A DNA stretch of 64,000 nucleotides from Mycolicibacterium diernhoferi (GTDB lineage Bacteria; Actinomycetota; Actinomycetes; Mycobacteriales; Mycobacteriaceae). Shown one piece after another: positions 40,406 through 44,568 of the stretch. Location of the stretch: contig NZ_CP080332.1 in NCBI RefSeq assembly GCF_019456655.1, positions 5,890,001 to 5,954,000 of the forward strand, in the 5' to 3' direction. Every line of letters starts with the position of its first letter. Position 1 is the stretch's first letter. A program made the position numbers and the translations under genes. The notes beneath the pieces are model-generated. The model saw only the letters and a list, made by a program, of their open reading frames with translations. It searched no databases and was not told the origin of the DNA.

Positions 40406-43285
40406 TCAGACCCCTTGCTTCGTTTCCTGTTTGGGCCAGTCCACCGGCACCGGGCGCTCACGCACCCGTTGCGGCCACCAGAACCACTTACCCATCAGCG
40501 CGGCGATCGACGGCGTCATGAACGCCCGGATCACCAGGGTGTCGAACAGCAGGCCCAGACCGATGGTGGTGCCCACCTGGCCGATCACGGTCAGTTCACT
40601 GACCGCCATCGACATCATGGTGAACGCGAACACCAGACCCGCGGCCGTCACGACCTGCCCACTGCCGCCCATGGCCCGGATGATGCCGGTGTTCAGGCCC
40701 GCGTGGATCTCTTCCTTCAACCGGGCGACCAGCAGCAGGTTGTAGTCCGCCCCGACGGCCAACAGGATGATCACGGCCATCGGAAGCACCATCCAGTGCA
40801 ACGGAATTCCGATCAGGTGCTGCCAGACCAGTACCGAGAGCCCAAACGCCGAACCCAGCGAGACCACCACCGTGCCGACGATCACCGCGGCGGCCACGAT
40901 GCTGCGGGTGATGATCAGCATGATGATGAAGATCAGCCCGATGGACGCGATCCCGGCGATGATCAGATCCCAGTTCGCGCCGTCCTGCATGTCCTTGAAG
41001 GTCGCCGCGGTGCCACCGAGATAGATCTTCGAGCCCTCCAGCGGGGTGCCCTTGATGGCCTCCTTCGCGGCGAGCTTGATCGAGTCGATGCGCTTGATGC
41101 CCTCCGCGCTCAACGGATCTCCGTCATGGCTGATGATGAAGCGCACCGCGTGCCCGTCGGGGGACAGGAAGTTCTTCATGCCGCGCTTGAAGTCTTCGTT
41201 CTGGAAGGTTTCCGGCGGCAGATAGAAGGAGTCGTCGTTCTGCGCGGCGTCGAAGGCCTCACCCATGGCCGACGAATTGTCCTGCATCGCCGACATCTGA
41301 TCCTGTATGCCCTTCTGGGTCTGATACATGGTCAGCATGTAGGTGCGCATGTTCTTCATCGTCGCGATCATCGACGGCATCAGCGCGACCATCTGCGGCA
41401 TCAACGCATCGAGGCGCTCCATGTCCGGGATGATGTCCTCGATGCCGTCGGTCATCACGTCGATGCCGTCGAGGGTGTCGAAGATCGAGCGCAGCGCCCA
41501 GCAGCCGGGAATGTTGAAGCAGTGCGGTTCCCAGTAGAAGTAGTTGCGCATCGGCCGGAAGAAATCGTCGAAATTCGAGATGTTGTCCCGCAATTCGGCG
41601 ATGTCGAGCGTCATGTCCTTCATCTTGCCGACCATCGAATGCGTGACGGCGGCCATCTGCACGGTGATGGCGCTCATCTTTTCCATGTTGGTGATGGTCG
41701 TCAGCATGTCGTCGGCCTGCTTGAGCATGTTGGCCATCATGTCCTGCTGGTACTTCTCGTTCATTTTCTGCGTGGTGCCCTGCATGCTGATCTGGAACGG
41801 GATCGAGGTGTGCTCGATCGGGGTTCCCTGCGGGCGGGTGATGGCCTGCACCCGGCCGACGCCCTCGGTGCGGAAGATCGCCTTGGCGATCTTGTCGATC
41901 ACCAGGAAGTCCGCCGAGTTACGCAGATCGTGATCGCTTTCCACCAGCAGCAGTTCCGGGTTCATCCGGGCCTGCGAGAAGTGCCGGTCGGCCGCCGCGT
42001 AACCCTCGTTCGCGGGCAGGTCGGACGGCAGGTACGCGCGGTCGTTGTAGTTGGTCTGGTAGCCCGGCAATGCCAGCAGGCCGACCATGGTGACCGCGAT
42101 GGTGCTGACCAGGATGGGACCGGGCCAGCGCACCACGGCCGCGCCGATCTTGCGCCACCCGCGGGTGCGCATTGCCCGCTTGGGCTCCAGCAGGTTGCCG
42201 AAACGGGTGGCCACGGTGATGATCGCGGCCCCCATGGTGAGGGCCACCAGCACCACGACGGTCATACCCACGGCCAGCGGGATGCCCAGCGTCACGAAGT
42301 ACGGCATGTTCGTGAAGTGCAGGCAGAAGGTGGCGCCGGCGATGGTCAGGCCCGAGCCGAGCACCACATGGGCGGTGCCGTGGAACATGGTGTAGTACGC
42401 CGATTCCCGGTCCTCACCGGCGGACCTGGCCTCCTGATATCGGCCCAGCAGGAAGATGGCGTAGTCGGTGGACGCCGCGATCGCCAGCGTGACCAACAGA
42501 CTGGTGGCGAACGTCGAGAGGCCGATGATCTCGTGGTAGCCCAGGAAGGCCACCACGCCCCGGGCGGCCAGCAACGACATCAGCACCATGAAGATGGTGA
42601 TCAGCATCGTGAGGAACGATCGGTAGATCAGCAGCAGCATCACGATGATGACGGTGAAGGTGAGCGCCTCGATCATCCGCATACTGCGGTCACCGGCGAT
42701 CTGCTGATCGGCGGCCAGCGCCGCGGGTCCGGTCACGAAGACCTTCAGCCCGGGCGGGGTCTGCATGCCGTAGACGATGTCCTGGACGGCCTCGATGGAC
42801 TCGTTGGCCAGCGCTTCGCCCTGGTTACCCGCGGTGTACACCTGCACGTAGGTGGCCTGGCCGTCGGAGCTCTGCGCGCCGGCCGCGGTCAGCGGATCGC
42901 CCCAGAAGTCCTGCACGTGCTGGACGTGGAACGGATCGGCCTCCAGCTTGGCGATCATGTCCTTGTAGAAGTCGCGATCGGCCTCGTCGAGTTTCCGGTC
43001 GGCTTCCAGCACGACCATGATCGAGCTGTCGGAGGTGAACTCCTCGAACACGGTGCCGACCCGCTTGGTCGCGATCACCGACGGGGCGTTGTTCGGGCTC
43101 ATCGAGACCGAGCGCAGCTGCCCGACCTCTTCGAGCTGCGGGACCGACACGTTCAGGAAGCCGATCAGCACCACCCAGCCGATGATGATCGGCAGGGCCA
43201 GGGTGCGAACCCATTTGGCGATGCCACCGCGGCGCGGGGGCTGGGTGACCGGGATGGTGTCCGTCCGCAGTTCGTCTACGCTCAT
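40406..43285 (-). CDS. MmpL-family RND transporter (MmpL4/MmpL5 type)
   Basis: From the ATG at 43285, which has GAGG upstream, the protein has 959 residues and about twelve membrane helices. The proton-relay Asp-Tyr pairs are in [10 protein letters not shown] (Asp274-Tyr275) and [10 protein letters not shown]. Residues about 505-670 form a long Met-rich coiled-coil hairpin, with two Cys (589, 595) at its tip in [10 protein letters not shown]. This hairpin marks the MmpL4/MmpL5 group, which work with MmpS and export siderophores, glycopeptidolipid precursors or drugs. The ATG overlaps a 22-codon ORF linking it to mmpS. Confidence 0.93.
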
Positions 43286-43350
43286 GCGGCCACCTCGCAG
43301 GCTCGGGCGCCGCATTCAGTGCCGATGATTCGCTCGCGTTGCTCGCTCAT
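43282..43350 (-). CDS. 22-codon ORF bridging mmpS and mmpL (MIRU-like coupling)
   Basis: The ORF begins at an ATG overlapping the mmpS stop (ATGA, 43350-43347) and ends with a TGA overlapping the mmpL ATG (43285-43282). The peptide starts [10 protein letters not shown] and ends [10 protein letters not shown], with two Cys. It carries the GAGG ribosome binding site of mmpL in its last codons. It is thus fully embedded between two 4-bp overlaps, the arrangement described for mycobacterial interspersed repetitive units. Whether the peptide has a role or only keeps ribosomes on the transcript is unknown. Confidence 0.55.
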
Positions 43351-43811
43351 GCGGACTTGACCAGGCAATAGGTGTGCGCGCCGACGCCGTTGACGGTGCG
43401 CTCGTCCTTCACCTCGTCATCGACGGTGATCCGGCAGGACAGCGTGCTGCCGTCACCCTGGCCGGAGATGGTCGGGAACACCGACGGTGCGGTGGTGCTC
43501 AAGGTGATCTCCCAGGGCAGGGTGACGTTGTCGGCGCGCACCGGTTTGGCGTCCAGATCCATGTAGTTCACGTTCGCCGTGGCGCCGGGCTCGCCCCACA
43601 CCTCGTACTTGACCACCTTCGGGTCGAAGGGCTCGGTGTCATCGGAGGCACTGTTCTCGGTGGAGATGTAGCCCGGGCCGGTGCCGAAGAAGGTCCGCAC
43701 CCGCATCACGGTGAACGTCGCCACCAGCACCACCGCCACGATGACCAGTGGTATCCAAACCCGCTTCAGCACGTTCACCGTGGGCACGCCATCTCGTTGT
43801 AGGCCTTTCAT
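43347..43811 (-). CDS. MmpS-family membrane-anchored transport accessory protein
   Basis: The 154-residue protein has one N-terminal membrane helix (about 18-36, RVWIPLVIVAVVLVATF) and an outside beta-sandwich domain with VKYEVWGEPGATANVNYMD, LPWEITLSTTAP and Cys pairs, as in MmpS4/MmpS5. These bind the MmpL periplasmic domains and are needed for export. The ATG at 43811 is used; a GTG at 43778 would give the shorter N-terminus typical of the family. The promoter and operators at 43820-43855 lie directly upstream. Confidence 0.9.
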   Translation of the reverse strand: MKGLQRDGVPTVNVLKRVWIPLVIVAVVLVATFTVMRVRTFFGTGPGYISTENSASDDTEPFDPKVVKYEVWGEPGATANVNYMDLDAKPVRADNVTLPWEITLSTTAPSVFPTISGQGDGSTLSCRITVDDEVKDERTVNGVGAHTYCLVKSA

Positions 43812-43855: not shown

Positions 43856-43983
43856 GCTAGTACAAGTCAGGCGGCTAGAAAATGTGACGGGGACAACTTA
43901 TCCGCCGCATTGCGGCCCGCGGCATGTCAAAGTGTCCGGAATGTCGCGTCGATGATCGGGATGACGAGAAGGAAGGGATGACG

Positions 43984-44568
43984 ATGGCCAAGCCGGTGTC
44001 GCAGCGCGGGTTCGCGCGCGAGCGGGTGATCGAGGCCGCGCTGTCCCTGTTCGCCGAGCGCGGCGTCAACGGCACCTCGTTGCAGATGATCGCCGATCAC
44101 CTCGGGGTGCGGAAGGCCGCGATCTACTACCAGTTCCACACCAAGGACGACATCGTGCTGGCCGTGGTCCGGCCGGTGTTCGACGATATGGCCCGGCTGG
44201 TCCGCATCGCCGAGTCCATCACCTCCGCCGAGTCGCGCCGCGACGCGACCATCAGCGGATTCGTCGAACTCGCCGTGCGGCACCGCCGCATCGGGTCGCT
44301 GTTCTACGGGGACCCCGCCGTCATCTCGCTGGTGCGGTCGCATCAGGAGTTCGAGGACATCACCGACAGCCTGCGCGAACTGCTGATCGGCGCCACCCAC
44401 GATGTCGGCACCCGGGTCGCGATCACCATGATCACCGCGGGCGTCTTCGGCAGCACCGCCGAGCCCCATCTGCAGGACATCTCCGACGTCGACCTGCACC
44501 GCTTCCTACTGGACTGCGCCCAGAACCTGCTGCGCGCACCGCAATCGGCCGCCACCCCGTCCGGCTAA
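43984..44568 (+). CDS. TetR-family transcriptional regulator
   Basis: The ATG at 43984 has AAGGAAGG about seven bases upstream and gives 194 residues; an ATG two codons earlier is too close to that site. The N-terminal helix-turn-helix is clear (VIEAALSLFAERGVNGTSLQ, then DHLGVRKAAIYYQFHTKDDI). The C-terminal ligand domain is unremarkable. It is divergent from the mmpS-mmpL operon with strong palindromes between, so it is the likely local repressor, perhaps releasing DNA when it binds an exported molecule. Confidence 0.9.
   Translation: MAKPVSQRGFARERVIEAALSLFAERGVNGTSLQMIADHLGVRKAAIYYQFHTKDDIVLAVVRPVFDDMARLVRIAESITSAESRRDATISGFVELAVRHRRIGSLFYGDPAVISLVRSHQEFEDITDSLRELLIGATHDVGTRVAITMITAGVFGSTAEPHLQDISDVDLHRFLLDCAQNLLRAPQSAATPSG

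What the first reader, a model, noticed from the sequence alone, without database searches (positions are those of the whole stretch)
43282..43350. 22-codon ORF stitched between mmpS and mmpL by two ATGA overlaps
The intergenic space is exactly one short ORF with stop-start overlaps at both ends and the mmpL ribosome binding site inside. Its start contains the GAGCGAGCAACGCGAGCG motif. This is the design of MIRU elements, which insert into operons without breaking coupling. It may set the MmpS:MmpL ratio or act as a mobile linker.
Basis: partly seen in the sequence, partly recalled or inferred. Interest (0 to 1): 0.72.

Follow-up and report, generated by a model that had tools for sequence, protein, structure and literature searches.

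The report
Interspersed start-codon linker repeat in mycobacteria
The 69-base piece between two membrane-protein genes is one copy of a short repeat that sits on the start codons of many unrelated genes in mycobacteria and their relatives, and it looks built to hand the ribosome from one gene to the next.

Summary
It is not a unique spacer: the genome holds 28 copies at 22 sites, relatives hold more. Copies carry DTGA at both ends, tandem copies repeat every 65 bp, and related junctions elsewhere are empty. This fits an interspersed element inserting at start codons, as MIRUs are said to do. Added here: (1) two hairpins supported by compensatory changes; the 3' one pairs the downstream start codon, and its partner changes when the start is GTG. 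(2) The frame stays open (0 of 132 copies with a stop, about 17 expected) without purifying selection on the peptide. (3) Longer relatives occur in 12 other genera of the order, mostly with lengths divisible by three. Best reading: a mobile translational-coupling module; ribosomes crossing the small ORF open a hairpin over the next start and Shine-Dalgarno, then restart. Dispersal and architecture are shown; coupling, mobility and any effect on the MmpS:MmpL ratio are inferred. Kinship with M. tuberculosis MIRUs could not be tested. Filed as MIRU-like, a new variant.

The parts
43282..43350 (-). the element: 69 nt with ATGA at both ends (65 bp repeat period), 22-codon [25 protein letters not shown]
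43347..43350 (-). 5' ATGA: mmpS stop overlapping the start of the small ORF
43328..43350 (-). 5' hairpin (element positions 1-23): pairs 1-23, 2-22, 5-19, 6-18 with G.A steps between; position 1 (A/G) covaries with T/C at 23 or 24. Covariation only; the energy model gives it low probability
   Evidence: against:
43316..43327 (-). variable spacer between the hairpins, where most substitutions fall
43284..43315 (-). 3' hairpin (positions 36-67): stem AUGCGG/CCGCAU that pairs two of three bases of the mmpL start codon; apical CC-GA-GC-CU-GC-GA-GG
43293..43296 (-). GAGG, Shine-Dalgarno-like, 7 nt before the mmpL ATG (positions 55-58); in all 127 rows of A2 and A3, but rows from the pattern search have it by construction
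43282..43285 (-). 3' ATGA: stop of the small ORF overlapping the mmpL start
43347..43811 (-). mmpS (PF05423)
40406..43285 (-). mmpL (PF03176, TIGR00833)

Best explanation
The 22-codon ORF is one copy of a short interspersed, very probably mobile, MIRU-like repeat that inserts at C|DTGA start codons and duplicates (or brings) the DTGA. It carries a small ORF that takes over the host gene's old translation start or stop-start overlap, plus a new Shine-Dalgarno (GAGG) and a 3' hairpin that pairs the host gene's start codon. Ribosomes finishing mmpS restart on the small ORF, open the hairpin while translating it, terminate at ATGA and restart on mmpL. The downstream gene thus stays dependent on upstream translation although 65 bp were inserted. 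The peptide is a by-product. Shown: copies, ends, empty sites, open frame, covariation, no excess of synonymous change. Inferred: translation, melting, restart, mobility, a neutral or mildly attenuating effect.
For: Copies: 28 matches at 22 sites; 22 of 118 genus genomes with R1, 97 of 396 with R3. Context: of 129 copies not preceded by another copy, 100 follow an open frame of >=100 codons (or >=50 cut by the locus end) ending in their DTGA (13.6% of 2,278 control RTGA sites, >=100 codons); of 131 not followed by one, 122 open a frame of >=100 codons, or >=15 cut by the locus end (controls 33.8%, >=100); both, 83 of 112 single copies against 3.5%. Related mmpS|mmpL junctions are empty in G096 and G049, phoH|ybeY in G096. 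C at -1 in 60 of 71 sites against 260 of 698 ordinary overlaps, and within each start-codon class. Hairpins: over all column pairs 41-62 and 40-63 rank first, 44-59 and 37-66 ninth and eleventh; 0 of 500 shuffles reach the covariation score in A2, A3, A4. Per downstream-gene cluster C37-G66 occurs at 9, A41-U62 at 16, G1-C23/24 at 14. Frame: 144 of 150 copies open and 3n; 0 of 132 with a stop, 17-18 expected; outside the genus 83 of 98 listed matches are 3n, 81 of the 91 of >=57 nt. Peptide: synonymous 96 of 373 = 0.257, expected 0.257; codon positions 167/195/198.
Against: No expression, ribosome or transposition data. Folding energies are mostly ordinary: window copy z 0.86, 12 other copies z -2.90 to +1.25, four at -1.7 or lower. 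In the fold of the whole window copy the consensus 3' stem has probability 0.36 and pair 45-58 only 0.01, and the 5' hairpin pairs at most 0.21; in the two consensus sequences the 5' pairs are at most 0.04. Weaker measures are less decisive: pairs changed on both sides 6, 49 and 8 of 500 shuffles and further pair types 9, 84 and 15 of 500 reach the observed value in A2, A3, A4, and the tool warns that related sequences can beat every shuffle without structure. Pair 44-59 is unformed in 34 of 127 rows. No mobility gene found. 13 of 71 sites are not at an upstream overlap, where coupling to an upstream gene cannot be the role.
Confidence: 0.7

Rival explanations
1. The hairpins serve DNA mobility: single-stranded end hairpins that an enzyme in trans recognises, with an internal base (23/24 and 37) reading the D of the target DTGA. 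Start-codon placement and the open frame are only what selection tolerates.
For: DTGA at both ends; C(-1) preference also at 12 of 13 sites without an upstream overlap; apical sequence more constant than pairing needs in the profile-found copies; half-elements with only the 5' hairpin still stand at gene junctions.
Against: Y1 transposases: none in this genome; 4 of 22 element-bearing and 17 of 96 other genomes have one (compared by hand). No match for two copies in plasmids and one in phages. At one shared site the states A-T, A-C and G-C at 1-23 occur in three species (L056, L175, L012), so pairing partners change in place after insertion.
Confidence: 0.3
2. It is simply a MIRU, homologous by descent to those of M. 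tuberculosis, and nothing else.
For: Published MIRU design: -4 nt coupling at start codons (PMC12548453, passage), 46-101 bp (PMC3914561, passage), 77- and 53-bp units in senX3-regX3 (PMC4213456, passage), a 77-nt leader made of one MIRU before an M. bovis gene that is leaderless in M. marinum (PMC4128351, passage). Periods 77 and 53, like 65 here, leave remainder 2 on division by 3, as ATGA-linked 3n ORFs must.
Against: Sequence not compared. The 1997 MIRU paper is not held; I recall it describing MIRUs as lacking dyad symmetry, unlike this family. PMC4213456 says the senX3-regX3 MIRUs exist only in M. leprae and the tuberculosis complex.
Confidence: 0.4
3. The 22-codon ORF encodes a functional microprotein.
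For: Frame kept open; several translated copies share an -ACE- and other cysteines.
Against: No excess of synonymous change, and fewer than expected in the spacer codons (21 of 141); the two subfamilies read the middle in different frames.
Confidence: 0.04
4. Ordinary spacer, alike by chance or by mmpS-mmpL duplication only.
For: The two loci of this genome are paralogues, 96% alike in MmpS.
Against: Copies at phoH|ybeY, recC|recB, eccB|eccC, after aspS; 76 downstream-gene clusters in all.
Confidence: 0.01

Closest known systems
Mycobacterial interspersed repetitive units (MIRU; Supply et al. 1997, not held, known through later papers)
   Same: Short interspersed repeat at start codons with an internal small ORF joined by -4 nt overlaps; tandem arrays; operon junctions
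   Different: 69 nt (65 period); covarying paired structure at both start codons; sequence kinship untested; relatives in other genera of the order
REP/REPIN and IS200/IS605-derived hairpin elements (recalled)
   Same: Short, hairpin-bearing, interspersed, exact tetranucleotide at the ends
   Different: No Y1 transposase found in this genome; sits on start codons with an open frame
Termination-reinitiation coupling by ATGA overlaps (PMC6728339, search listing only; PMC12548453, passages)
   Same: ATGA stop-start and an internal Shine-Dalgarno
   Different: Here it is a portable module, repeated at many unrelated genes; coupling itself not measured

Membership tests
MIRU | interspersed repeat of about 46-101 bp | tested here: met
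   69 nt, 28 copies at 22 sites
MIRU | small ORF overlapping both neighbours at DTGA, same direction | tested here: met
   83 of 112 single copies have long frames on both sides, 144 of 150 ORFs open and 3n
MIRU | tandem copies at some loci | tested here: met
   5 of 22 own sites: four arrays of two and one of three plus a remnant
MIRU | sequence homology to M. tuberculosis MIRU | not testable with these tools
   no tuberculosis-complex genome reached (0 of 396); no MIRU sequence found in papers
MIRU | no dyad symmetry (recalled from the 1997 paper, which is not held) | tested here: not met
   covarying hairpins
IS200/IS605 or REPIN type | Y1 transposase available in the genome | tested here: not met
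   PF01797: 0 in G000; 4/22 element-bearing vs 17/96 other genomes
MITE | terminal inverted repeats | tested here: not met
   ends begin ATGAGCGA and end CCGCATGA; symmetry lies within each hairpin, not between the ends (read)
MITE | short target duplication | tested here: inconclusive
   DTGA flanks copies on both sides; empty sites have it once; which copy is new is unknown
translational coupler | downstream translation depends on upstream translation | not tested
   no expression data

The most novel reading that the evidence does not exclude
An order-wide family of minimal mobile elements that find genes by their start codons: two hairpins, each holding one DTG start codon by base pairing, let the element replace a start codon with a self-contained restart module, so that operons are lengthened in steps of one repeat and expression is tuned by copy number, without any encoded protein.
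Probability: 0.3. Interest if true: 0.85.

Novelty: new variant of a known kind. Interest (0 to 1): 0.66.

Why it matters
How MIRUs arose, move and act is, as far as I know, still open. A family with covarying hairpins, two subfamilies, empty sites and relatives across the order makes both questions testable in harmless species, gives sequence-structure models to find more, and points to a repeat that is translated for the act of translation rather than for its peptide. It also warns annotators that such 20-odd-codon ORFs need not be microproteins and that gene starts inside the hairpin arm are probably false.

Tried and rejected
Microprotein reading: disfavoured. Rfam: no match at E <= 1 in 43100-43600. 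Y1 transposase as mobility gene: no association. Phage and plasmid copies: no match for L006 in phages, L006 and L093 in plasmids, E <= 1e-3; the window copy itself was not tried. Thermodynamic stability as evidence: mostly not beyond shuffles. M. tuberculosis MIRU comparison: published primer absent from 396 genus genomes, no paper text with such a sequence, 1997 paper not held. Half-element matches (positions 1-30, four sites) were read but not counted among the 28; a weak match at 2292773 (E 0.0023) was not counted either. G034 mmpS|mmpL was first taken as empty; its two mmpL genes begin with the same 19 bases as the element of L179, so I treat it as a probable deletion scar. Orientation against replication: not tested.

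Full report
WHAT IS THERE. The reported ORF is exact: 69 nt on the minus strand, 22 codons, ATGA overlaps with mmpS and mmpL. Pfam and NCBIfam support the neighbours (NCBIfam has no MmpS match).

A REPEAT FAMILY. BLAST of the 69-mer against the own genome (one contig, 5,998,503 bp, unnamed) gives 30 places at E <= 10; rows 1-18 and 20 are copies, the others look like chance apart from perhaps row 22, which resembles a 5' half. A profile of 15 copies (A1, R1) gives 49 matches at E <= 10, of which 28 at E <= 2.9e-10 cover the element or all but its first few bases; they lie at 22 sites. Four more cover only positions 1-30 or 2-31 (E 0.02-0.055). The search scored 150 of 5,454 first-look candidates, so counts are lower bounds. 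Five sites hold arrays with a 65-bp period, or 66 at 299248. The second mmpS-mmpL pair of this genome carries two copies, the first identical to the window's.

WHERE IT SITS. Sites in this genome include phoH|ybeY, recC|recB, eccB|eccC, the 3' side of aspS and a branched-chain permease gene (RecC, RecB and EccC pieces score below the whole-protein NCBIfam cut-offs, being cut at the locus ends). From 262 loci I took 166 distinct copies; 16 with N or without TGA at both ends were dropped, leaving 150. Of 129 copies not preceded by another copy, 100 follow an open frame of at least 100 codons (or 50 cut by the locus end) that stops in their 5' DTGA; of 131 not followed by one, 122 open a frame of at least 100 codons (or 15 cut by the locus end). 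Controls, 2,278 sampled RTGA sites in the same loci, give 13.6% and 33.8% for at least 100 codons; both together hold for 83 of 112 single copies against 3.5%. The base before DTGA is C at 60 of 71 sites, against 260 of 698 ordinary overlapping pairs; in a second count it is 49 of 58 against 134 of 288 for ATGA, 11 of 12 against 126 of 409 for GTGA, and 12 of 13 at sites without an upstream overlap.

FILLED AND EMPTY SITES. In G096 (contig length equal to the M. frederiksbergense LB 501T record) two mmpS-mmpL pairs, 95 and 96% alike in MmpS, have a plain GC-ATGA junction; a G049 pair (69%) too. G034 (96-97%) lacks the element, but both its mmpL genes start with the 19 bases ATGAGCGAGCGCAGCGAGC found at the 5' end of the element in L179 (Mycolicibacterium sp. 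P9-22), which is filled at the same junction; I read G034 as a deletion scar, and the insertion as older than this species. G033 carries a copy at the same junction of a different mmpS-mmpL pair (52% identity); in all, 14 copies in 11 loci follow an mmpS. phoH|ybeY: YbeY was found in 115 of 118 genomes and 30 loci were read: G000 and G034 have two copies each, 27 show none, and L231 was misplaced by a contig end. Further filled ones are among the pattern loci.

TWO HAIRPINS. RNAalifold on A1 first showed the 3' hairpin. On 132 distinct 69-nt copies, a covariation score over all column pairs puts 41-62 and 40-63 first, 44-59 ninth and 37-66 eleventh; the places between are pairs within columns 17-23, where the two subfamilies are out of step by one base. 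Within the larger subfamily the order is 37-66, 40-63, 41-62, 1-24, 1-66 (the two start-codon letters themselves), 44-59, 6-19; within the smaller 41-62 leads and 8-16 and 10-13, not part of the model, are among the first five. Position 66 and its partner 37 are A:T 114, G:C 14, G:T 3, A:A 1; position 1 and the base after GAA are A:T 99, G:C 20, A:C 6, G:T 1, C:C 1, five rows without that motif left out. Pair counts: A2 (79 rows) 95.7% of 1,343 cells paired, A3 (48 rows) 93.3% of 720; 0 of 500 shuffles reach the percentage or the covariation score in either, slid versions reach at most 52% and 46%. The counts of changed pairs and of pair types are less decisive, above all in A3 (49 and 84 of 500). 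Per downstream-gene cluster (76), C37-G66 occurs at 9, A41-U62 at 16, C40-G63 at 6, G1-C at 14, so the changes are not one inherited event. Between the pairs stand facing 5'-GA-3' steps (U-GA-GC-GA ... GA-GC-GA-A; CC-GA-GC-CU-GC-GA-GG), which I recall as favourable tandem sheared G.A pairs; not tested. Caution: rows match positions 45-58 and 63-69 by the search pattern, so constancy there counts only for rows found by profile; positions 1-44 and 59-62 were free.

THE FRAME, NOT THE PEPTIDE. 144 of 150 copies have an open ORF of length 3n. None of 132 has an internal stop; shuffled or random spacers give 17.6 or 16.8 on average, never below 5 in 1,000 rounds each. Yet in 81 pairs of copies at 22 shared sites (mmpS sites left out, at most 14 differences) changes fall evenly on codon positions (167, 195, 198) and 96 of 373 single-change codons are synonymous, 0.257 against 0.257 expected. 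Substitutions per site: spacer 24.8, 3' stem 9.5, 5' hairpin 6.3, apical part 2.7, the last partly by construction. Pairs were counted without a tree.

HOW WIDE. R1: 22 of 118 genus genomes at E <= 1e-6. R3: 97 of 396 at E <= 1e-4. A pattern scan of named genomes gave 111 stretches, 108 of them titled Mycobacterium, Mycolicibacterium or Mycobacteriaceae. The structure model R2 finds 37 of 249 genomes of the order at E <= 1e-3, in 13 of 68 genera; 29 of these genomes, 12 genera, lie outside the genus. Of the 98 matches listed there outside the genus (33 to 96 nt) 83 are divisible by three, 81 of the 91 that are at least 57 nt; five tandem pairs overlap by exactly 4 nt. Of 27 loci read, 26 have DTGA at both ends. 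Alignment A4 has 22 of these (L272-L274, L280 and L287 left out; L275 is of the genus) and 5 copies from before: pair 1-25 is A-U 17, G-C 10 without exception, 84.5% of 452 cells are paired, 0 of 500 shuffles reach the covariation score, slid versions at most 41%. In the phylum 7 of 246 genomes match, 5 of them in the order.

HOW IT LIKELY WORKS. Inserted at C|DTGA, the small ORF inherits the host gene's stop-start overlap, or its own start signals, and the host gene receives GAGG seven bases before a start codon held in a stem. Translation of the small ORF must pass through the stem, after which ATGA restart is close at hand. This is inference from anatomy. In the ViennaRNA ensemble the window copy's start codon is paired at 0.94, 0.93 and 0.60, but the consensus 3' stem only at 0.36; in the two subfamily consensuses that stem is at 0.91-1.0. 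The 5' hairpin is not favoured by the energy model in any of the three (at most 0.21).

AGAINST KNOWN SYSTEMS. The design is that of MIRUs as reviewed in PMC12548453 (passage read). Membership by descent could not be tested, and the paired structure disagrees with my recollection of the 1997 description, so I say it works like a MIRU and do not file it as one. In nine paper searches I saw no listing that describes this family; one search found no paper with four of its sequence strings. Most subscription papers are not held, so this is weak evidence of novelty. Papers were seen as passages or listings only, none in full.

Noticed in passing
window 43283-43315, minus: The 3' hairpin arm holds an ATG in frame with mmpL, so gene callers can give MmpL ten false N-terminal residues; ATG-type copies elsewhere have the same trap.
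   Followed up: partly
G000:C1:5933282 and 3227433 (L001, L002): The two mmpS-mmpL loci are 96% alike in MmpS and share an identical first copy, which suggests gene conversion; one locus has one copy, the other two.
   Followed up: partly
L267, L268, L269, L270: Half-elements holding only the 5' hairpin stand at gene junctions; in three (L268-L270) the piece is in frame with the downstream gene, in L267 an 11-codon ORF ends in an ATGA overlap.
   Followed up: partly
L271 249-499 (G000:C1:299248-299499): Three 70-nt copies (66-bp period) and a truncated fourth before a gene that looks like mceB (from memory); the extra base makes the copies read into each other instead of stopping at ATGA.
   Followed up: partly
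L089 6514-6577: Actinokineospora iranica holds a relative of about 63 nt with a similar apical hairpin, weak by profile (E 5.9e-4).
   Followed up: partly
L056, L175, L012: At one shared site three species show A-T, A-C and G-C at element positions 1-23, as if the pair were changing in place.
   Followed up: partly
window 43924-44568, plus: An ORF that looks by eye like a TetR regulator stands divergent to mmpS; no family search was run on it.
   Followed up: no
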